DNA from: a virus
IMG/VR virus record: IMGVR_UViG_3300025082_000091
Coordinates: 1 to 21,417 of that record
Length of the DNA stretch: 21,417 nucleotides
Reading direction: 5' to 3' (one strand)
Shown here: piece after piece, positions 3,887-21,323 of the stretch
Layout: every line of letters starts with the position of its first letter
How positions within the stretch are numbered: the stretch's first letter is position 1
Made by a program: the position numbers and the translations under genes
Notes under the pieces: generated by a model
Told to the model about the DNA's origin: nothing
Database searches by the model: none
Seen by the model: the letters and a program-made list of their open reading frames with translations, nothing else

Positions 3887-4939
3887 TTAATTTACACAAA
3901 TGTTCCAATCGTTAAGTTTCTTGTATTTTTTATTTGCTTCCTTCGCACCATCTATTCTGAATTGAAGTGGTGCATCTATATTTAGTTTCCGAATCGATTT
4001 GTATACATCCCCGAACCCATCTTCGATCTTTCTGCCAGTTGAGACCATAACCCCCAGAACTCCGTCGGATCCCGCACATCGTACTTCGTTGTTTTCGCTC
4101 TTAACGTCCTGAAGCCAGAATCCGTTTGAGTCCTTTATGTCCATATTCAGCTTGACGTTCTCAGCCAAAGACAAGAGGTCTTTAGACGTATAAGGGTATG
4201 GCGGTATAGTTATTCTCTCGGAACAGGCGAAGCCATCACCAGCCTTCGTAAATCCTTCCGTCAGGAACTCAGTAACTGAGACCTGTAACAATGCCAAAAG
4301 ACAAAATATACTGTCATACCTGAACCCAAACCTCCAGTTGTTGAAATAGGGCTTTTTATCCCTTGAATTCACCGTACAATCGACGCTGACGGCTCCGACG
4401 TACCCTTGGTCGGTCAACATAGGCACAAGTGATTCCAGCTCCTTTTTGAGCAACTCAGCCCCGTGCTTAACCCATAGACAGACAGACTGTGATGCCATCT
4501 TTTGTCCCAAATCTCCTGTAAGCAGGCACTGATTCGGTAACGAATAAGTAAACAGTACAGGCTCTTTGCCGTTAAACCACATCTCCGCAACGAGTTGTAT
4601 GCCCTTGGCTCCCTTTTTCACCTTGATTCCAGCCTGTTTCGCAAGCTTTTTTGCCTCTACAGGGTCGGATTCGTAATTATGTAGACCCCTTCTTTGGTTT
4701 ATTGTTTTATTTTCTAAACAGTCTTGCAGAGATCCCAAATCTACGTTCGAATCAAACACTATTTTGTCTGCTTTGTCTATCATTTTTTTCAGGTCAGAAA
4801 TCCGCACCTTATCGATGATGCCGTTATAATTATTCTGGTACAAATCATTGTGAATATAAATCTCAGTTTCTGCACCTTCTCGTCTCATACGGTAAACGAT
4901 GGGAAGCGATGCCCCAAATTTGCTTATGAAAAGTATCAT
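3887..4939 (-). CDS. PurD/GARS-like ATP-grasp protein, apparently degenerate
   Basis: The product has 350 residues from the ATG at 4939, which overlaps the previous stop as ATGA. An upstream in-frame TTG at 4951 lies inside the previous gene and is less likely. The fold pattern follows phosphoribosylamine-glycine ligase: an N-terminal Rossmann-like strand (MILFISKFGASLPIVYRM), a helix with SDPVEAKKLAKQAGIKV, an ATP-grasp strand (VAEMWFNGKEP, about 117-127), GDLGQK (142-147), YVGAVSVDC, PYFNNWRFGFRYDS (197-210), and a GARS-C-like end (GVLGVMVSTGRKIEDGFGDV, then QFRID). Two things are odd. The usual ExNxRFG metal-binding motif reads FNNWRFG, so the Glu position is Phe199. The stretch that should form the first ATP-binding subdomain, between about 107 and 115, is almost absent. 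The family usually has about 420-430 residues. It may be a pseudoenzyme or a diverged ligase. Its tail-gene neighbours suggest a virion or host-takeover role rather than ordinary purine synthesis. Confidence 0.72.
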   Translation of the reverse strand: MILFISKFGASLPIVYRMRREGAETEIYIHNDLYQNNYNGIIDKVRISDLKKMIDKADKIVFDSNVDLGSLQDCLENKTINQRRGLHNYESDPVEAKKLAKQAGIKVKKGAKGIQLVAEMWFNGKEPVLFTYSLPNQCLLTGDLGQKMASQSVCLWVKHGAELLKKELESLVPMLTDQGYVGAVSVDCTVNSRDKKPYFNNWRFGFRYDSIFCLLALLQVSVTEFLTEGFTKAGDGFACSERITIPPYPYTSKDLLSLAENVKLNMDIKDSNGFWLQDVKSENNEVRCAGSDGVLGVMVSTGRKIEDGFGDVYKSIRKLNIDAPLQFRIDGAKEANKKYKKLNDWNICVN

Positions 4940-5394
4940 GTGCTTTCCCAATTTGTAATATCATATGCCCTGTACGTTACATTGCTTCCGCTTGCAAGAG
5001 TCGTAGAGGTATCAACACCCGCACCTAAATTATCACTGCTTGCAGGAAATATCTTTAACGTATTTGCACCGTTATTGATAATAACTGCTGTCAGCCCTGT
5101 CTTTGCAGTCGGCAGTGTCACTGTATCGTTTGCATTTGCTACGGTAGAAATCTCATTTATTGTTGAAGTTAAAGGTTGCTGACCCTGCGTTTGTGTGGTA
5201 GATGCTGTAATACCTGAAGTCACACGGTCAAGGTCATCGTTTATATTTATAATATTAGATAAATGAGAATACATCTCCTGCAAAGATTTTATCAGCTTTC
5301 TGAAATAATCATTTAACTGTTCATGGTCTTCGTTCTCACTGGATAGAATAGCCTGCTCGTCAAGTGGCAATACCTTTTTGTCATCAGCTTTCAT
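4936..5394 (-). CDS. Small tail-fibre-associated / virion protein
   Basis: This is a 152-residue protein whose ATG overlaps the hub gene stop as ATGA. Residues 1-60 are charged and helical (EDHEQLNDYFRKLIKSLQEM), suitable for an oligomeric coiled coil or anchor. Residues about 75-150 are Thr/Asn/Gly-rich beta segments (VTLPTAKTGLTAVIINNGA, LKIFPASSDNLGAGVD, SNVTYRAYD). That beta segment resembles a small domain found in many phage fibre or neck proteins, where a value is modelled as a constant plus an optional offset in repeated beta strands. Position directly after the gp10-like hub supports a tail attachment role. No receptor-binding or depolymerase domain is present, so the main receptor-binding protein is not identified here. 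Confidence 0.75.
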   Translation of the reverse strand: MKADDKKVLPLDEQAILSSENEDHEQLNDYFRKLIKSLQEMYSHLSNIININDDLDRVTSGITASTTQTQGQQPLTSTINEISTVANANDTVTLPTAKTGLTAVIINNGANTLKIFPASSDNLGAGVDTSTTLASGSNVTYRAYDITNWEST

Positions 5395-7199
5395 ACTCCA
5401 AACTTTCCTTTTACTGGCAGAAAATACGGAATTATTGCATGGATCTTCGGTGTCTGCCCTGTAGCACTTTTACTCAAAACCATTGAATGAAACTCTCCGA
5501 TTGCCCCAGAGTAAACTCTCTTCCACACCTTATCATCGTTGCTGTCAGAAGGGTCGTCAAATGTTAATGTGTCAGTCTGGTAGGCACTCGAATCTTCATT
5601 TATAAAAAGAGCTACGTCAAGGGTGACACTATCATCCCTGTCAACAAGCAGGTCAACATACCCAAGCCTCGCCTTAAACCCTTTTTTTACATACGGATTG
5701 AGTTTCTTTGTTTTTACGGAGAACTCAAAGGCAGCAGTGTTGTCGGCACCCGTAGTGTTAAGCTTGTGAACAACTCCTGCTGTTGTCCCTGCAAGTGTTA
5801 CGGGAAAACCAGCCTGACCCGTATTGGCATCCCATGTTGGCTCTACTTCGTCCCAAGTCGTTTCTCCAAACCCATCCCATGTTAAATCAGCATCTACAGT
5901 CCATCCCCCGAGAGAATGAAATCCTATAGTAAATATAGACCATGTATTATTAACTCTGTTCCTGACAAGCATCCTGTCGTTTGTAGTACTGTTCGCATTG
6001 GGGTAGCTTATAAACTGAAGATCAAGTTCTTCCAAGAAAATTGAATAAATAAGATTAAAGTTTTCTTGGTCAAAATCCTGTACTGCGTCGGGTACCTTTA
6101 AATTTTCAACCCTTGCGCTTAATCCATCCGTAGAAATAACATTTGAAGCACTTACCGCACTAACTTCATTAGAAAAAGACAATATTGAATGTTTGGCAAG
6201 TGAACCGCTGAAGCTGTCTATCTTTTCCCACCTGAAAGGAAGGTCTACATTCTGTGTATGTTTAAACAACCAAATTGATTTCTCGAAAAAGATAACAAGT
6301 TCATCGTTAAGAAACGCACCGCCATTTATAAATTCAGATGTAGGAGCATCCACAAATCCATCATTAGTAAAGTCTATGCCTCCTGCGGTTGCCCACCTCG
6401 CTCTTTGTGCATGAAGCGTTCCGTCTTCTGTCGTACGAAAACACACAAGATGGTCTTTGTATGCAAACACCAGCAGGCAGGTAAGTGTAATATTCCCTGC
6501 GCCCAGATTTACAGTCGGCTTTGAAAGACTTGTTCCGTTATAAGAATCAATAACATCGCTGTTATTAGTAAAGTAAAGCGTCCCTGCCCAGTTCGCCCAA
6601 TGAAAAAACTGACTCGTACTTCCAGAAAATCTATCTGCCTTTGGTATATCATCAAGCCCAGAGGTTTGAACATTCCACTTCGCAACTCTCTGGGTATCAA
6701 AGACGAGAAGGTTTGACCCCCCTACAGGTGTAATGTGATTTGCTATACCCATTATAGCATTGCCGTCAACAAAGCTATAACTTACCTGAACTGCACCAGT
6801 TGGTGCTGCGTCCCACTCAAGAGCAATTGCGCCTGTTGTATAATTTATTGTGCTTGTCGTGCCGTCCCCAGTAAACCCACCCTCACCATCATCCGTAAGT
6901 GTTTGAGGTCCTCCGCCAGAATCTGTAATAACCACAGTTCCAACTACTCCCGAGCGGACAGGGAGATTTGAAAGAGTGTGAGATGCTGACTGGCTGGTGT
7001 CAGCTATGTTTTCGGCAGATACAAAATGAGCCATTTCTGCCCACTGGCTATATCCGAGTCTTTTCTGCAGAACGCCATTTTTTATAAACCCGTTCTGGAG
7101 AGACTCAAATGCATCCTCTGGAACAAGCCAAGGCTCCCTTACATTTACCTGACCACTTTTAAAATCACTTATAGGAAAAGCTTCATAGCCTACTACCAC
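5391..7199 (-). CDS. P22 gp10-like tail hub / DNA stabilisation protein
   Basis: The product has 602 residues. The start is a GTG at 7199 with a perfect AGGAGG six bases upstream, inside the end of the preceding Cys/His protein gene. The N-terminus (FKSGQVNVREPWLVPEDAFE, then LQNGFIKNGVLQKRLGYSQW) is a hallmark of phage neck-plug proteins of the P22 gp10 class, in which an N-terminal arm leads into a beta-propeller. The body is beta-rich, with repeated short segments such as GIANHITPVGGSNLLVFDTQ and NNTWSIFTIGFHSLGGWTVD. The C-terminal part (about 470-600) is a beta domain with YVKKGFKARLGYVDLLVDRD. In this family the protein seals the portal channel after packaging and connects it to the tail. 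Spacing to the gp4-like gene and the P22-like portal upstream agrees. Confidence 0.82.
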   Translation of the reverse strand: MVVGYEAFPISDFKSGQVNVREPWLVPEDAFESLQNGFIKNGVLQKRLGYSQWAEMAHFVSAENIADTSQSASHTLSNLPVRSGVVGTVVITDSGGGPQTLTDDGEGGFTGDGTTSTINYTTGAIALEWDAAPTGAVQVSYSFVDGNAIMGIANHITPVGGSNLLVFDTQRVAKWNVQTSGLDDIPKADRFSGSTSQFFHWANWAGTLYFTNNSDVIDSYNGTSLSKPTVNLGAGNITLTCLLVFAYKDHLVCFRTTEDGTLHAQRARWATAGGIDFTNDGFVDAPTSEFINGGAFLNDELVIFFEKSIWLFKHTQNVDLPFRWEKIDSFSGSLAKHSILSFSNEVSAVSASNVISTDGLSARVENLKVPDAVQDFDQENFNLIYSIFLEELDLQFISYPNANSTTNDRMLVRNRVNNTWSIFTIGFHSLGGWTVDADLTWDGFGETTWDEVEPTWDANTGQAGFPVTLAGTTAGVVHKLNTTGADNTAAFEFSVKTKKLNPYVKKGFKARLGYVDLLVDRDDSVTLDVALFINEDSSAYQTDTLTFDDPSDSNDDKVWKRVYSGAIGEFHSMVLSKSATGQTPKIHAIIPYFLPVKGKFGV

Positions 7200-7471
7200 T
7201 GACTACCTCCTGTTTTAATCAACTTCAAATTAGACAAGGTATGGAATCCATTTGCAATTTCATTCTGAACTCCAGAAACCTGCTCGGTTGTTCTATTGGC
7301 AGCATTTACAGTCATCATTAATAACTTGGGCATTAACACATGACCACACGCCTTCTCGACTTTAAACTCTTTAGAGTCATTGGTCATAGTTATTTCCATC
7401 CAATGAGGACATCCTTTTTCGTCATTAGATTGCGGACATTTATGACACTTGTTTGCGTTTTTATAATTCAT
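7193..7471 (-). CDS. Small Cys/His (zinc-ribbon-like) phage protein
   Basis: This is a 92-residue protein. Cys9, Cys12, Cys21, His23, Cys42 and His44 form a CxxC...CxH...CxH pattern (CHKCPQ, GCPHW, ACGHVLMP), which suggests a bound zinc. The N-terminal half is the metal-site domain. The C-terminal half (about 46-85) is helical with VNAANRTTEQVSGVQNEIAN. Small proteins of this look commonly sit beside neck and tail genes in phages with P22-like portals, but I know of no established function. The start has no clear Shine-Dalgarno box and lies two bases after the collar protein stop, so translation is probably coupled. The gene overlaps the hub gene by seven bases and carries the hub's ribosome binding site. 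Confidence 0.75.
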   Translation of the reverse strand: MNYKNANKCHKCPQSNDEKGCPHWMEITMTNDSKEFKVEKACGHVLMPKLLMMTVNAANRTTEQVSGVQNEIANGFHTLSNLKLIKTGGSQW

Positions 7472-12645: not shown

Positions 12646-12860
12646 ACATTCTCCTTCTTAACGGTAAACCCCCTGTTCCCAGTCATGTCTGGGTATACCC
12701 TGACATTACCTTTAGCCCTTGCAATCATTGACTGCATCAACAGCCCTATGCCTCCATGTGATATAGTTTCAACCCTTGCAGAATTATGTTCTTTGATTAC
12801 ATCAGGTATAGTATCTGAAATATTTCTCAGAGTTCCAAATTTGTCAAAATACTTTTTCAT
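12639..12860 (-). CDS. Small protein after portal, function unknown
   Basis: This is a 73-residue protein whose ATG overlaps the portal stop as ATGA, so translation is coupled. It is basic overall with a helical centre (TIPDVIKEHNSARVETISHG; LLMQSMIARAKGNVRVYPD) and ends in KKENVC. The coding region also supplies the ribosome binding site of the next gene. I do not recognise it. Confidence 0.65.
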   Translation of the reverse strand: MKKYFDKFGTLRNISDTIPDVIKEHNSARVETISHGGIGLLMQSMIARAKGNVRVYPDMTGNRGFTVKKENVC

Positions 12861-14770
12861 CTCTGTGTCACTAATTGTTTCTGTTCTTCTGGCTTCGTTA
12901 TTTCATCGATTTCCTTTGCAATAGACATCGCAGTTGCAACCTTGTTTATTTCGATCTCCGAAGCAGCCTTAATTCCGAGTATCTCATTAAGATTAGCCTT
13001 CGATTTATTGACTTCAACAGTACTGGCATCTTTAAATGCCTTTGCCTTTGTTGATTCTATCGCTGCCTGATTTACCTGATCCTGAATCTGCTGCGACTGC
13101 GTAGCCATTTTTGCCTGACCTTCTACTATCTTTGCCAGTTCGTCCTTCCTCTCAAGGTTGGATGCCTGTATAATTGCAGAGTCTGGAATTTTAACTCCAG
13201 CCCTCTTCATGCCAAGCAACTGCATGAAGTGCATCTGTTTCTGCGAGTCCGTCAACAAGCCTTCTGTAACTTCCACGTCATGCCGTGAGAGATCAGGGTC
13301 AAAGAACTGTGCAGATGGCTGTCTGTTCGTAATCCTGTGTATCTTTTCCGCATCCCAGTTTTTTCTCACTATCGCCATTGTGATTCTTCCGAGCAATTCC
13401 TTGGACGTACTATAGTTATCAAAGAGATCCTGCAAAGTCGTAAGTGCCTGCCCAGTCCTCACCCTTGCCAGTATACCAGCCACCTCAACATCATCCTTGT
13501 CTGCAAGCCCTAACAGCTCGTTATTCGCCCCAGAGATCTCGACCAAATCATCGTCCATGACCTTCTGCATCTGCAGGTTCCCTGCTGGTATGTCAGGGGG
13601 CGTTATCTTCGCCACACGTTCCGAAATAGGTCTCCCTGCCTGCTGCTTGAGCCATATCACACCACCCTGCCCTGTCTGATACAGAGACTCTTTGTTCACA
13701 ACAGATTTTTCTTCTGCGAAGTACCCGCTGTTGAGCTGGGAGTCGAGTATGTCAAGGTTCTTGCTTCTGCGTTTGTTTACCTCTCTCTGGGGGTCGATGA
13801 TGTCCCTGACAACACCCTGTATCTTCTTATCAAGTTCAATATACTCAGGATCAAAATACCCCATAACAGGCACAAATCTGAAATTATTTGTCCCCATCGG
13901 GTCTGGACCGTGATAAATCTCTTCGTCTTCTATAAATATCGTTACCTCAACATCTCTCTCAAACCTCTTTATCTTTTCAAGAGAAGGGAACTCTTTCGAT
14001 ATATCATTTGCCTCTTTTTCGGTACCGTCAAAACGATGCATCCTGTTTGTATTTACGTCAAAGAACACAATCACTGGCTTACTGACTCTCTGCCAGTGTT
14101 CGTCATATCTTAACAGCTCATGCTTCAACAGGTTTTCATTGAAATTAGACGTTATATATTTGTTATCCTGCGCTGGTCGCATGGGCTTCAACTTATCTAT
14201 TTCGCCCGCAAAGAATGGTGCAATCGATTTCGCTGCACTTCTTGTTATCCATTCCCGTCTGAGTATTTCGGGACAGTCGCTCAGATCTCTTCTCGTAAAA
14301 GACGGATGGAGAAGGAACCTGTTGTGCGGTATCCTCGTATACTTCAACTCTCCGTTTAAGGGATCCGTACTGAAATCAAGCCAAGGCTCTACCAAGTTCA
14401 ACCCAGTTTTAAGCGCACCCTGTTCAAACGCATCCGACATCACGTTGTAACCCTGACAGTGCTTCATTATGTACTGAAGCGTCTGGCTCCATATCGATGC
14501 ATCTTCGGTGTCAGAGTTTTCGTTCGGGTCAACTTTATAACTGAGCCTGTTCTTACGCTGGTAACCAGAAATAATCTTAATGATGCGTTTTATCTTGTTA
14601 AAGACAAAGGCGTTCCTTCTTTTACTCTTGAGGTAACCCTTCTCTGCTGAACTCCACTGATCACCAAGAACGAACCGCATATCACTGTCGGCTTCTTTAA
14701 TCCACTTATCCCAGATAACGATAAAGTTGTTATACGTTTCATTGTATTTATCTATTCTGCGTTCTGCCAT
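12857..14770 (-). CDS. Portal protein, P22-like
   Basis: This is a 637-residue protein. The N-terminal MRFVLGDQWS (31-40) and NKIKRIIKIISGYQRKNR (58-75) are typical of P22-class portals. So are EPWLDF, RIPHNRFLLHPSFTRRDLSD, and the helix VRDIIDPQREVNKRRSKNLD around residues 335-355. The region after about 390 (GANNELLGLADKDDVEVAGI) and a long Gln/Lys/Ala-rich C-terminal helix (about 540-637) correspond to wing, clip and barrel segments. P22's portal has about 725 residues, so this one is somewhat short at the barrel end. It forms the dodecameric ring through which TerL packages DNA. Start: TAATAATG directly after the coiled-coil gene, with no strong Shine-Dalgarno box, so reinitiation is likely. 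Confidence 0.92.
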   Translation of the reverse strand: MAERRIDKYNETYNNFIVIWDKWIKEADSDMRFVLGDQWSSAEKGYLKSKRRNAFVFNKIKRIIKIISGYQRKNRLSYKVDPNENSDTEDASIWSQTLQYIMKHCQGYNVMSDAFEQGALKTGLNLVEPWLDFSTDPLNGELKYTRIPHNRFLLHPSFTRRDLSDCPEILRREWITRSAAKSIAPFFAGEIDKLKPMRPAQDNKYITSNFNENLLKHELLRYDEHWQRVSKPVIVFFDVNTNRMHRFDGTEKEANDISKEFPSLEKIKRFERDVEVTIFIEDEEIYHGPDPMGTNNFRFVPVMGYFDPEYIELDKKIQGVVRDIIDPQREVNKRRSKNLDILDSQLNSGYFAEEKSVVNKESLYQTGQGGVIWLKQQAGRPISERVAKITPPDIPAGNLQMQKVMDDDLVEISGANNELLGLADKDDVEVAGILARVRTGQALTTLQDLFDNYSTSKELLGRITMAIVRKNWDAEKIHRITNRQPSAQFFDPDLSRHDVEVTEGLLTDSQKQMHFMQLLGMKRAGVKIPDSAIIQASNLERKDELAKIVEGQAKMATQSQQIQDQVNQAAIESTKAKAFKDASTVEVNKSKANLNEILGIKAASEIEINKVATAMSIAKEIDEITKPEEQKQLVTQR

Positions 14771-17059: not shown

Positions 17060-17217
17060 TACTTTCTCTTTGTCCTGTCGGTACCGCTGGTATCGTCGTT
17101 CTTCTGAGGAGAGATACTCTCGCCCCTGCCAGTCTTTTTGCCTATATCCCCACCCTTTATAGTGGCATCAATCGCTTCTCTTTTCGCCCTGTCTCTAAAT
17201 GATTCAGTCTTTGTCAT
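17059..17217 (-). CDS. 52-residue basic peptide upstream of TerL
   Basis: The ATG at 17217 lies inside the end of the 45-codon gene (14-base overlap), and the stop overlaps the TerL start as TAATG. The sequence is charged (SFRDRAKREAIDATIKGGDI; GKKTGRGESISPQ) and ends DRTKRK. Net charge is about +5. It is too short for an ordinary terminase small subunit and shows no helix-turn-helix, though it occupies the usual TerS position. I do not recognise it. Confidence 0.6.
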   Translation of the reverse strand: MTKTESFRDRAKREAIDATIKGGDIGKKTGRGESISPQKNDDTSGTDRTKRK

Positions 17218-17341
17218 TTTCCAAGTCCAATTCAGGAGCCTCTACTTCGCCCCAGTCCACATCTTTAAGAGGTACACCTGCTTCCTTACCGTATCGTTTT
17301 AATGCATCGGATACCTTTTTATAGTCTATATCTGTTTTCAT
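17204..17341 (-). CDS. 45-residue acidic peptide
   Basis: The ATG at 17341 overlaps the previous stop as TAATG, with AGGAGAG just upstream inside the end of the polyvalent-domain gene. The product (DYKKVSDALKRYGKEAGVPL, then KDVDWGEVEAPELDLENDKD) has an N-terminal helix and an acidic tail. It overlaps the next small gene by 14 bases. No family is recognised. Good ribosome binding site and tight coupling argue for a real gene. Confidence 0.6.
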   Translation of the reverse strand: MKTDIDYKKVSDALKRYGKEAGVPLKDVDWGEVEAPELDLENDKD

Positions 17342-19599
17342 TATCTCTCCTGCTGGCTAAGTACCGCTGCTGCGCCTCCAGCGCCTGCAGCGCCTGCACC
17401 CACCTGAAAGAGTGGAAATCCTGATTCTCTTGCCATCTTACGCATTGAAGGTGTTAATTTTATTGATTGAAACTTTGTGTTTCCGCCTACTCTTTTTAAT
17501 GTTCCACCTAATACTTTAGCAGAAGCATCTGATAAATGTATATTAACCGCATCTTCAAAGCGAAGCCCCCGTTTCAGTGAGTCTTCAAATTTATTTAATT
17601 GTTCAATTATTTCCGCACTTCTTCTTGTATCCTTTGAACTCTTAACAAACGCATCTCTTGCTTTTATAACATCAAGAGTATCAGGAGTCTTTCCTACAAA
17701 TACTCTGATTGACTGTTCGCCTGCCCCACCAGCTATATTAATATCATCGACACTCGCACCAAATTTTTTCCCAAGATTATTCGTTATATTCTTTATCTTT
17801 TTATCATATAGATTGAACGCCCATTGACCACCAACACGAAGTCCGTCACCCTCAAGAGAAGTGGTAATACGCCCTTCTTTAATATCTCGAATCTCATTAC
17901 TTATAAGTGCTTTTTTAAGTGATAATGGTTCTCTATTCTTTCTGTCTTGGAAGTTAAACTTATCTCTCCGTTTTACTATTTTATCTTCCTGTTTTTCCAA
18001 CTGTTCAAGTCTACCCCTAAAAGTCTTTTCATCCCATTGTTTTGCAACTTTATTAGCAACACCTGTTCCTACTGATGTTTCTAGTTCAGCGTGATTCTTC
18101 ACTGTAACATTTTCCAACTCTCCTGTTTTTGTCTGAATCTGTAAATTTACAGAACCATCAGAGTTCTTTGTAAATCTTATCTTATCTGCTACCGTACTTA
18201 CATCATATCTATCAGCAGTTTTCTGCCCGTTTATCCACGCAACTCTATCAAATCCATCATCAGCAGCCTGCTTCAACACACGCTTCATGGTAAACTCTTC
18301 CCAATTCCTTAAGAGTGGTGCGTTAGGAATATTTGCTTCTTGTCTTGTTACAAGCTTGCCGAGTTTTGCTTTTTCGTCAGCACTTAGGAGCCTTTGAAAT
18401 CTGAGCGCCTGCAAGTCTCCCACTTCCTTTATCTCTGAATTTGTTAATTCTTTAAGAGAACCCTTGAATCCTTTTTGTCTTCCTGCTAAATTCCAATCAC
18501 TCTGCAATTCTTCAATAAACAATACTCTTTCGCCATTTGAGCTTATTCTTTCGTTCATACGAACATGAGAAAGTATATTTGGCTCGTCAAAATGACCTTT
18601 TTCGGCGAAAAAGTTTATTGTTCTCCTTCCAAATGACTGTGGCAACCTCAGTAATAACTCTTTATAATTAGTACCGCCTGCAAGCGTTAAATTTGATGCC
18701 TCGTCAGGACCGAACTTAGTCGTACCATTTTTTGCAGCATTTGTACTTAAAGCATCAAGCCTTTCTGCCTGTATTACCAATGCTTCTTGTCTACGGAACG
18801 CTCTGGCTGCTCCTGCCGTGTCACCTTGAGCTTGAAGCTTTTGTCCTTCTCTTAATGCTCCATCTGCTCTATTGAATGTTTCTTCAGCCTGTTGAGTGAG
18901 AGTATTAAAGTCGTTATTACTTAAAACAGTCTCTTCTATATTGACCTTATTTGCATTTACAAAGTCCTGAAGTTCTTCCTTGGTTACATTCTTTTTACCT
19001 GCAAGGAAGTCATCAACACCTGTCCAGAGCCTCTCAGAAGGCTTTACATTCTTACTTATAAAGTTCCGAGCATCTTGAGCGGATAACTTATTAGGAAAAT
19101 TAGGTGCTTCAACCGTTTGCTGCAATTTACTGAAAAACGGTGCTGCCACCTTACCGCCACTCTTTTGAACTACACTCGCAACGCCACCAACGCCAAGACC
19201 AATACCAGCCTGAATCGGATCAAATATCGAACTCACAACTTCAGCCGTAGTCCTAAACGGCGTTCTTGCCTGTGGTATCAGGTTATTTTCAGCAAACCTG
19301 CCTGCAACCTGACCAACCTGTTCAGTAGGCGGTATAAGGAACTCTCCGCTTCTCGGGGTAACGCCTCTTAATTGTTCAATAAGCCCTATTTGCATGGGTT
19401 CTTCACCAAGCACACTTGCAACAGATCTAGATTGTCCACTCAACGCTCTCTCCAAGTCAGTAGATTGGTTCCGCCCTCCAAGTATACGATCAAGCACAGA
19501 AGCTTTTAATATATCAAGCTGCTGCGGTATTTTTCTAAGAGCATTGATCAACGAGGTGTCCTGCTGCCTAACAAATATCCCCCTGTCACCATTAGCCAT
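17341..19599 (-). CDS. Polyvalent-type phage protein with LPD-like domain
   Basis: This is a 752-residue protein with AGGAAA seven bases before the ATG. The N-terminal 160 residues contain a Gly/Val-rich hydrophobic stretch (SSIFDPIQAGIGLGVGGVAS, about 123-142). Residues about 172-225 match the small helical unit common in phage polyvalent proteins (LSAQDARNFISKNVKPSERL, WTGVDDFL, VTKEELQDFV). Residues 310-475 carry the larger conserved domain: NYKELLLRLP, HFDEPNILSHVRM (336-348), FIEELQSDW (361-369), and later FDRVAWINGQKTADRYDVS. The end TPSMRKMARESGFPLFQ is also characteristic. In polyvalent proteins of phages and plasmids these domains sit beside enzymes thought to be delivered with the DNA; their own activity is unknown. 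Here the domain is encoded alone, between a radical-SAM gene and TerL. Role: a likely injected effector or internal protein. Confidence 0.8.
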   Translation of the reverse strand: MANGDRGIFVRQQDTSLINALRKIPQQLDILKASVLDRILGGRNQSTDLERALSGQSRSVASVLGEEPMQIGLIEQLRGVTPRSGEFLIPPTEQVGQVAGRFAENNLIPQARTPFRTTAEVVSSIFDPIQAGIGLGVGGVASVVQKSGGKVAAPFFSKLQQTVEAPNFPNKLSAQDARNFISKNVKPSERLWTGVDDFLAGKKNVTKEELQDFVNANKVNIEETVLSNNDFNTLTQQAEETFNRADGALREGQKLQAQGDTAGAARAFRRQEALVIQAERLDALSTNAAKNGTTKFGPDEASNLTLAGGTNYKELLLRLPQSFGRRTINFFAEKGHFDEPNILSHVRMNERISSNGERVLFIEELQSDWNLAGRQKGFKGSLKELTNSEIKEVGDLQALRFQRLLSADEKAKLGKLVTRQEANIPNAPLLRNWEEFTMKRVLKQAADDGFDRVAWINGQKTADRYDVSTVADKIRFTKNSDGSVNLQIQTKTGELENVTVKNHAELETSVGTGVANKVAKQWDEKTFRGRLEQLEKQEDKIVKRRDKFNFQDRKNREPLSLKKALISNEIRDIKEGRITTSLEGDGLRVGGQWAFNLYDKKIKNITNNLGKKFGASVDDINIAGGAGEQSIRVFVGKTPDTLDVIKARDAFVKSSKDTRRSAEIIEQLNKFEDSLKRGLRFEDAVNIHLSDASAKVLGGTLKRVGGNTKFQSIKLTPSMRKMARESGFPLFQVGAGAAGAGGAAAVLSQQER

Positions 19600-19610
19600 T
19601 TATTTCCTCA

Positions 19611-21323
19611 TTATTTCGTATGCTGGCTTCCCCACAGATATACCCGTTCCTTTCGCTTTTGTGGAAATACAGTCTGCTTTGGAGGTGTTTTACCGAATCC
19701 CTTATAACAGTTTAGACAGTCTGCACATGAAGCCGAATCAGCATCGTCACAGACAGAGGACTGGTAAGCCCCTTTAGCTGCAGCCCTTTTTAGTTTAAGC
19801 GTACCGCCCTTTGTAGCTTTGTAAAATTGCGTGTCGAGTTCAAATATTTTAGCGGAAGACCCCCTCTTCCACCTGAGTCTTGTTTCGAGTGTGGGGATCT
19901 TCAGTTCATTGGTAATGTCTATAGCCTTTTGCATCTGGGCTTTTATAATAGGATTCCTGCTCATAAGGCTTCTTATGCGAGCCTGAATTTTAACCTCTGG
20001 AAACCTCTCCTTGAGGATCCTCAGGTTATCAATTGTGATTTGTAGTTGTGTGGGGTTTAACGGGTCAAGGCTCACCTCTATGTTTTTCATGACTTCAGGA
20101 TCAAAGCCCTTTAAGCTTTGTAATTTTGATACCAAAAATGTGTTATTCGCAGCAGTAGTGTCTGGAGACCTTGCAAGGAGAGACCTTAGCTCTTTTGCGG
20201 TATGCTCTCCGTGTATAAGAGGGTCTCCGTTTACACCTATTCTTATAAACTCATTGGGTTTTATTATCTCATCTGGATGAATCGTTGCTGGCACAGGGTC
20301 TTGGAATGTAACCTGTTGCTGACCGCATAAGCCTGCAGCAAAACATTCAGCACAGTTGTTTCCGCATCCCTTTACTGTATCAACCTCCCTTATAAACGAA
20401 TCCTTACGAGGTTTGCCAGTTTTAGGATCGGCAGGAGATTTCATTTTCAGGTTTGTAGTGAGCTTCTGTATCTCTGGGAAGGTTAGCTCTCTAATGGGTC
20501 TCTCAACAAGACCAATAACACTTGCCTTGTCAGGTAGACTTAACGCTTCAAATGCAGGATTACCTATTAGTTGCTTATTGATAGTATCTTCTATTTTGTT
20601 GCGCCATTTTCCATGCTTTTTGTCCCATCCCTGAATCATTTGAATATTTTCATTGGTTATAAACTGCTGTATCCTGTCTGTTGTTACGAGATTCTGTTTT
20701 TGCCCTTCGGGAAGTGTGGTGTTTGCTATTCTATTTGCTCGATTTGAAATGGCTGTTTCTTCTGCTTTTTGAATTTTGCTTACAGGGATTACTGAGGTCT
20801 TCTTTTGTACTATCGGAACAAACTTCTGTTCCTTGCCACCCGACATCCCAAGTTTAAAAGGTTTAGCAGTAGTAGCTGCGTCTTTTGCAAAGCCTGCTGT
20901 TTTACCAGCTCCCGCACCAGTGCTTTTCTGGAAAACACCGCCAACCATCCCCAGACCCTTTCTAAACAGGAAATTAAATGGATTTGCAAAGTCAGTGAAT
21001 AGCTCGAGATTATCTCCAATACCACCAACTACACCCCTCCTGACACCCTCACGACCCTTCCCAAAGATCCCAAGTTCCTCAAACGGAGTCTTAGGAAAGC
21101 GTTCCTGAAGTATTCTACCTAGATTTGAAGCAGGGACTTTTGGTCCTAAAATATCTATTTGTGTTGGGGGGGCATTATTGAATTGATTTGAAATTGAGTC
21201 TGGCTGGTTCAGACCAAGAATCTTCCTGAGAAGAATCTCATTAATAACATTTGGACTATTAAGCGCCTTATCTAAAAGGGTGGGGTCTTCTCCAGCAGTG
21301 GATTTTTTTAGAACTATTGACAT
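19611..21323 (-). CDS. Radical-SAM-like protein with long virion-type N-terminus and C-terminal Cys cluster
   Basis: This is a 570-residue protein with AGAGGAA before the ATG. Residues 320-327 are CGNNCAEC, the exact CX3CX2C that binds the radical-SAM [4Fe-4S] cluster, with Cys333 close by. It is followed by strands in the expected barrel order: FIRIGVNGDP (359-368, at the GGE-like position), IEVSLDP (415-421), VKIQARIRSL and IPTLETRLRWKRG. Cys525, Cys533, Cys536 and Cys539 (CX7CX2CX2C) suggest an auxiliary cluster. The first 300 residues have no iron-sulfur motif; they are Gly/Lys-rich with a hydrophobic Gly/Phe region (about 95-125), more like a phage internal protein. The family is reminiscent of phage Gp37/Gp68 (DUF5131) and Gp88 proteins, which have similar barrels. 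The substrate cannot be told. It is co-operonic with the polyvalent-domain protein. Confidence 0.75.
   Translation of the reverse strand: MSIVLKKSTAGEDPTLLDKALNSPNVINEILLRKILGLNQPDSISNQFNNAPPTQIDILGPKVPASNLGRILQERFPKTPFEELGIFGKGREGVRRGVVGGIGDNLELFTDFANPFNFLFRKGLGMVGGVFQKSTGAGAGKTAGFAKDAATTAKPFKLGMSGGKEQKFVPIVQKKTSVIPVSKIQKAEETAISNRANRIANTTLPEGQKQNLVTTDRIQQFITNENIQMIQGWDKKHGKWRNKIEDTINKQLIGNPAFEALSLPDKASVIGLVERPIRELTFPEIQKLTTNLKMKSPADPKTGKPRKDSFIREVDTVKGCGNNCAECFAAGLCGQQQVTFQDPVPATIHPDEIIKPNEFIRIGVNGDPLIHGEHTAKELRSLLARSPDTTAANNTFLVSKLQSLKGFDPEVMKNIEVSLDPLNPTQLQITIDNLRILKERFPEVKIQARIRSLMSRNPIIKAQMQKAIDITNELKIPTLETRLRWKRGSSAKIFELDTQFYKATKGGTLKLKRAAAKGAYQSSVCDDADSASCADCLNCYKGFGKTPPKQTVFPQKRKERVYLWGSQHTK

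What the first reader, a model, noticed from the sequence alone, without database searches (positions are those of the whole stretch)
19611..21323. Radical-SAM-like enzyme embedded in a phage morphogenesis operon
The sequence shows a textbook CX3CX2C at residues 320-327, barrel-like strands after it, and a CX7CX2CX2C cluster at 525-539. The gene lies two large genes upstream of terL, on the same strand and tightly spaced. The first 300 residues look like a virion or internal-protein region rather than an enzyme. Radical-SAM enzymes in phages are mostly known from nucleotide or DNA modification loci. One fused to a structural-type N-terminus and made with the late genes could be packaged and injected, or could modify a virion protein or the DNA.
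Basis: partly seen in the sequence, partly recalled or inferred. Interest (0 to 1): 0.75.

Follow-up and report, generated by a model that had tools for sequence, protein, structure and literature searches.

The report
Phage cargo protein with radical-SAM-type domain
A gene among the head-packaging genes of an uncultured tailed phage encodes a protein whose back half looks like a new family of radical-SAM iron-sulfur enzymes, and relatives in unrelated phages sit in proteins that are probably carried in the virus particle and injected into the host, a chemistry not previously listed for such injected proteins.

Summary
The 570-aa protein (minus strand) has only eight cysteines: CX3CX2C at 320/324/327, CX7CX2CX2C at 525-539, and C333. 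Seven are invariant in all relatives down to 25% identity; in close relatives the domain is under purifying selection (dN/dS 0.06-0.13). No curated family matches significantly. The best weak matches are radical-SAM models (best PA0069, E 0.006), and profile comparison with SPL/PA0069-type enzymes gives 92-94% probability, but that score rests almost wholly on the cysteine block. Gp88 and DUF5131 are not supported. AlphaFold failed, so the barrel is unproven. The surroundings are more telling. In near-identical phages (virion block 99.5-99.8% identical) the terS-terL slot carries diverged, mosaic versions of this gene, one enlarged to 1015 aa. Distant relatives lie in a 2343-aa multidomain protein at the ejection-protein position of a T7-like module, in an array of tagged effectors after a portal (beside an ADP-ribosyltransferase), and right after a P22-like portal; one is free-standing in a 145-kb virus. 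Best reading: a virion-packaged, injected effector with a new radical-SAM-like domain. Packaging, catalysis and substrate are inferred, not shown.

The parts
19611..21323 (-). gene for the 570-aa cargo protein with the radical-SAM-type domain
   Evidence: relatives
20904..21323 (-). residues 1-140: N-terminal tag-like region, fast-evolving, shared with L002 and L003
20457..20903 (-). residues 141-289: linker, then (from about residue 240) a helical lead-in conserved in the fused relatives L042 and L050
19614..20456 (-). residues 290-570: radical-SAM-type domain
20343..20366 (-). CX3CX2C, residues 320-327, putative SAM-binding [4Fe-4S] site, invariant
19707..19751 (-). CX7CX2CX2C, residues 525-539, putative auxiliary Fe-S site, cysteines invariant
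17341..19599 (-). 752-aa neighbour with an EELQSDW-type domain also found in HTVC028P gp34 and in giant phage proteins; absent from L002 and L003
15728..17059 (-). terminase large subunit (context)
12857..14770 (-). P22-like portal protein (context)

Best explanation
The gene encodes a late-made cargo protein. Residues 1 to about 240 are a non-enzymatic tag and linker that bring it into the particle. Residues about 240-570 are a radical-SAM-type enzyme with a SAM-binding [4Fe-4S] site (C320/C324/C327) and a C-terminal auxiliary cluster (C525/C533/C536/C539). It is packaged with the DNA, enters the next host with it, and uses host SAM and host reductant to modify a host or phage macromolecule at the start of infection. 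Shown here: the motifs, their invariance, purifying selection on the domain in close relatives, the location of the gene in a variable slot between terS and terL, and recurrence of the domain in multidomain or tagged proteins at virion-gene positions in unrelated phages. Inferred: fold, cluster binding, catalysis, packaging, injection. Unknown: the substrate.
For: Invariant seven cysteines and strand-like motifs in 7 members; dN/dS 0.06-0.13; the five best NCBIfam matches of the core are radical-SAM models; hhalign Prob 92-94 with SPL/PA0069-type proteins, scores 54-56 against shuffles up to 24. Cargo context: mosaic terS-terL slot beside a 99.5-99.8% identical virion block; L003 version with extra domains, one shared with a giant phage protein; L058 2343-aa multidomain protein between internal virion protein and tail fibre; L057 array of similarly tagged proteins after a Mu-type portal, one with an ADP-ribosyltransferase; L059 directly after terL and a P22-like portal; the 752-aa neighbour related to a gene in the internal-virion block of HTVC028P. 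Polyvalent phage proteins are typically found near late virion genes (PMC5512222).
Against: With the cysteine block masked, similarity to SPL/PA0069 falls to near noise. AlphaFold gave no usable model. No virion proteomics. A free-standing 269-aa member in a 145-kb virus works without any tag. In the window protein itself only one enzymatic domain is recognisable. An oxygen-sensitive Fe-S enzyme inside a particle is chemically awkward.
Confidence: 0.55

Rival explanations
1. It is a radical-SAM enzyme that acts in the producing cell, modifying a virion protein or the genome before or during packaging; the N-terminus docks it on the procapsid or terminase and it need not be injected.
For: Late-gene location next to terL and portal in the window and in L059; Fe-S clusters would be easier to use in the producing cell; free-standing member in L060.
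Against: Near-identical virion blocks tolerate very different versions and neighbours in the slot, so no strict co-evolution with a virion protein is seen; association with effector-type and polyvalent domains.
Confidence: 0.25
2. The CX3CX2C and the C-terminal cysteines bind structural zinc or an Fe-S cluster in a non-radical-SAM protein.
For: Profile similarity to radical SAM depends on the cysteine block; no confident fold.
Against: Canonical spacing within GCxxxCxxC[YF]A, invariant in all seven members; the five best NCBIfam hits are radical-SAM families; downstream conserved motifs (RIGxxG[DE], [ST]K, VS-DP, RxR) fit alternating strands of a partial barrel by inspection.
Confidence: 0.12
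3. It is a moron or auxiliary metabolic gene that landed in the slot and is simply expressed in the infected cell.
For: The slot is a variable insertion point; a free-standing relative exists in a large virus.
Against: Conserved N-terminal tag-like region in close relatives; in all four fused lineages the gene is at a portal, terminase or internal-virion position.
Confidence: 0.1

Closest known systems
Phage polyvalent proteins (Iyer et al. 2017, PMC5512222)
   Same: Late-locus, modular proteins at virion-gene positions with swappable enzymatic domains; L003 and L058 versions are multidomain.
   Different: The word 'radical' does not occur in that paper's text; in the window protein only one enzymatic domain is recognisable.
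PA0069 / Rv2578c / spore-photoproduct-lyase-like radical SAM proteins
   Same: GCxxxCxxC[YF]A block followed by an IGxxxDP-type strand; weak profile match.
   Different: Similarity does not survive masking of the cysteine block; the SPL-type alignment has only three invariant cysteines and no conserved C-terminal cluster.
Gp88 (PF17338), mycobacteriophage D29 gp88
   Same: Phage protein of similar length with an N-terminal cysteine triad and, in the closer members, C-terminal cysteines.
   Different: Spacing CX6CX3C, not CX3CX2C; no profile similarity above shuffles.
Pelagibacter phage HTVC028P gp34 and the adjacent internal virion proteins
   Same: A protein related to the 752-aa neighbour sits inside the internal-virion-protein block of a marine phage.
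   Different: Only the neighbour's domain is shared; no match to the 570-aa protein in the phage collection.

Membership tests
Radical SAM superfamily | CX3CX2C motif conserved in homologues | tested here: met
Radical SAM superfamily | Partial TIM-barrel fold | tested here: inconclusive
   AlphaFold pLDDT 33 and 37; Foldseek uninformative
Radical SAM superfamily | Profile similarity to known members | tested here: inconclusive
   Best NCBIfam hits are radical-SAM models, E 0.006-0.05, below cut-off; hhalign Prob 92-94 but dependent on the cysteine block
Radical SAM superfamily | SAM cleavage by a [4Fe-4S] cluster | not testable with these tools
   needs biochemistry
Gp88 (PF17338) | Match to the Pfam model or profile | tested here: not met
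DUF5131 | Match to the Pfam model | tested here: not met
   no such hit among Pfam matches
SPL / PA0069 family | Match above the curated cut-off | tested here: not met
   NF033668 E 0.006 for one member only
Phage polyvalent protein | Located among late virion genes | tested here: met
Phage polyvalent protein | Several domains of disparate activity in one polypeptide | tested here: inconclusive
   met for L058, suggested for L003; window protein has one recognisable enzymatic domain
Phage polyvalent protein | Packaged in the virion and injected | not testable with these tools
   needs virion proteomics

The most novel reading that the evidence does not exclude
A previously undescribed, so far virus-only radical-SAM family whose main use is as an injected virion effector: the first radical-chemistry module in the phage polyvalent/cargo arsenal, carried into the cell with an assembled or re-assembled [4Fe-4S] cluster to modify a host target at entry.
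Probability: 0.4. Interest if true: 0.8.

Novelty: new variant of a known kind. Interest (0 to 1): 0.62.

Why it matters
Injected phage proteins described so far use ADP-ribosylation, kinase, protease, methylase, nuclease, nucleotide-signalling or polymerase chemistry. A radical enzyme would add carbon-radical modification (or DNA-lesion or RNA chemistry) to what a phage can do in the first minutes of infection, and raises a sharp question: how an oxygen-sensitive Fe-S enzyme survives inside a particle. The family alignment and motifs given here make it searchable and testable.

Tried and rejected
Pfam, PHROG, NCBIfam and PDB sequence searches gave nothing significant. Gp88 as parent family: rejected. 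A shared N-terminal tag between the 570-aa and 752-aa proteins: hhalign score 19.2 against shuffles up to 21.9, not supported. No relatives found by pattern search in bacterial genomes or by tblastn in sequenced phages; the plasmid search gave only E 2-8 hits, the annotated one a PA0069 radical SAM protein. Searching with the N-terminal tag found only L002 and L003's contig. Distant terL relatives whose upstream region is held (L012, L013, L016) carry no such gene there. L048 (249 aa, 170-kb virus) matches only weakly (E 0.001) and is not counted as a member.

Full report
OBSERVATION. The window is a whole IMG/VR record of 21,417 bases. The ORF at 19611-21323 is on the minus strand and encodes 570 aa. 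Both motifs together did not arise in 20,000 shuffles. On the minus strand the order is this gene, a 752-aa gene 11 bp on, a 281-bp gap, terL (PHROG 2, E 2.6e-17), two short genes and a P22-like portal (E 7e-77).

FAMILY. Curated libraries and PDB sequences gave no significant hit to the protein. Three close relatives were found in IMG/VR. A motif scan for GCxxxCxECYA, checked with an HMM of the domain, and an alignment-based scan gave four distant lineages: L042/L058 (E 4e-48), L050/L057 (E 2e-47), L051/L059 (E 2e-31) and L060 (27% identity, tblastn E 3e-24). In the seven-member alignment 28 positions are invariant: all seven motif cysteines, the D, G and A around the first motif, R100/G102/G105 (the RIGxxG[DE] strand), K139 ([ST]K), VS-DP, RxR and PxLET (numbering of the aligned segment). 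In the close relatives the domain evolves with dN/dS 0.06-0.13; the N-terminal 130 residues evolve faster (0.24-0.27). No member was found in 84,980 bacterial and archaeal genomes by pattern search or in 50,697 phage records by tblastn.

IS IT RADICAL SAM? For: the motif is canonical; an NCBIfam scan of the seven core sequences returns five radical-SAM models as its best hits (PA0069 E 0.006, NrdG activase 0.032, HPDL activase 0.032, Rv2578c 0.037, HpsH-type activase 0.053); Pfam's best hit for the domain is Fer4_12 (best E 0.011, 3 of 4 members); the only annotated plasmid hit is a PA0069 radical SAM protein, though at E 2; hhalign against ten SPL/PA0069-type proteins gives Prob 74 with the four close sequences and 92-94 with six or seven, far above shuffles. 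Against: with the cysteine block masked the comparison falls to near noise, and two AlphaFold runs failed. I hold radical-SAM membership at about 0.85. The C-terminal cysteine cluster, invariant in all lineages, points to an auxiliary Fe-S cluster, as in several radical-SAM groups (background knowledge). Gp88 has a superficially similar layout but no profile similarity and different spacing.

WHERE IT SITS. In four phages whose terL-to-virion block is 99.5-99.8% identical in DNA, the region between terS (PF20901, E 7e-6 in L003) and terL differs. The window has the 570-aa gene and the 752-aa gene; L001 has the same domain and the 752-aa gene (its contig starts inside the gene); L002 has a 542-aa version alone; L003 has a 1015-aa version with about 460 extra residues inserted between the N-terminal tag region and the radical-SAM-like domain. 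The window and L003 are identical again in the 80 bp after terS. I read this as a cargo slot that recombines independently of the virion genes. One inserted domain of L003 also occurs in a giant 'methyltransferase' protein of a Rhodobacteraceae phage; L058 matches the same protein and shares the 'FGxTDDxxEAGYI' sequence. The 752-aa neighbour has a domain found in HTVC028P gp34, which lies inside that phage's internal-virion-protein block, and in a giant protein of Microcystis phage Mel-JY33.

RELATIVES' CONTEXT. L058: a 2343-aa protein downstream of a tail protein (PHROG 376), an internal virion protein (PHROG 418) and a 559-aa gene, and just before the tail-fibre gene (PHROG 1640); this is the ejection-protein position of T7-like phages. 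It also has a stretch shared with BPP-1 Bbp10-type giant proteins. L057: after a Mu-type portal (weak, E 0.0016), a run of proteins shares an N-terminal tag of the form KDGTVxxGSxCCTEECL or a variant of it; one carries the radical-SAM-like domain, another an ADP-ribosyltransferase (E 2.6e-21) with a metallopeptidase-like end, others peptidase-like HExxH or GNAT matches. L059: directly downstream of terL and a P22-like portal (E 4.6e-28). L060: free-standing, 269 aa, next to a CobT-like gene in a 145-kb virus. Iyer et al. place phage polyvalent proteins among late virion genes and infer packaging from it (PMC5512222); the word 'radical' does not occur in that paper.

MECHANISM. The most economical reading is a virion cargo enzyme: made late, packaged through the N-terminal part, injected, and active early in the next host on an unknown substrate with host SAM and electrons. 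A role in the producing cell (modifying a virion protein or DNA) remains possible, and the free-standing L060 member shows the catalytic unit does not need a virion tag. SPL-like resemblance would suggest DNA chemistry; the auxiliary cluster would equally suit protein or RNA modification; I do not choose between these on present evidence.

NOVELTY. New variant of a known kind: an undescribed radical-SAM-like domain family, so far viral only in the collections searched, in the setting of injected polyvalent effectors. No paper found in the library describes a radical-SAM domain in virion cargo, but most subscription literature is not in that library.

Noticed in passing
window 17060-17340; L010:1-400: L001, L009 and L010 carry about 180 bp, with a small ORF (MAGDSLVKKVFGAISGEAAGG...), just upstream of terL that the window, L002 and L003 lack.
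   Followed up: partly
window 3887-4951 (minus): 354-aa protein inside the structural module that resembles an ATP-grasp or PurD-like enzyme by eye; no Pfam hit.
   Followed up: no
window 7193-7471 (minus): Small 92-aa protein with a cysteine-rich N-terminus (CHKCPQSNDEKGCPH) among the structural genes.
   Followed up: no
L057:1875-16891: Run of large genes after a portal sharing a short cysteine-containing N-terminal tag, with ADP-ribosyltransferase, metallopeptidase-like, GNAT-like and radical-SAM-like domains: looks like a tagged cargo array.
   Followed up: partly
L057:409-1446 (minus): A second, clearly SPL/PA0069-type radical SAM protein (hhalign Prob 99 to A4) close to the same portal.
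   Followed up: partly
L060:1-16678: 145-kb virus contig with the free-standing family member next to a CobT-like VWA gene, another CX3CX2C protein, a gene resembling a reverse transcriptase by eye and one resembling a ribonucleotide reductase by eye.
   Followed up: no
L013:1555-3948: A distant terL relative seems to be interrupted by an in-frame intein-like insertion (about 350 aa after 'WHRR', ending 'VHNSGKDKT').
   Followed up: no
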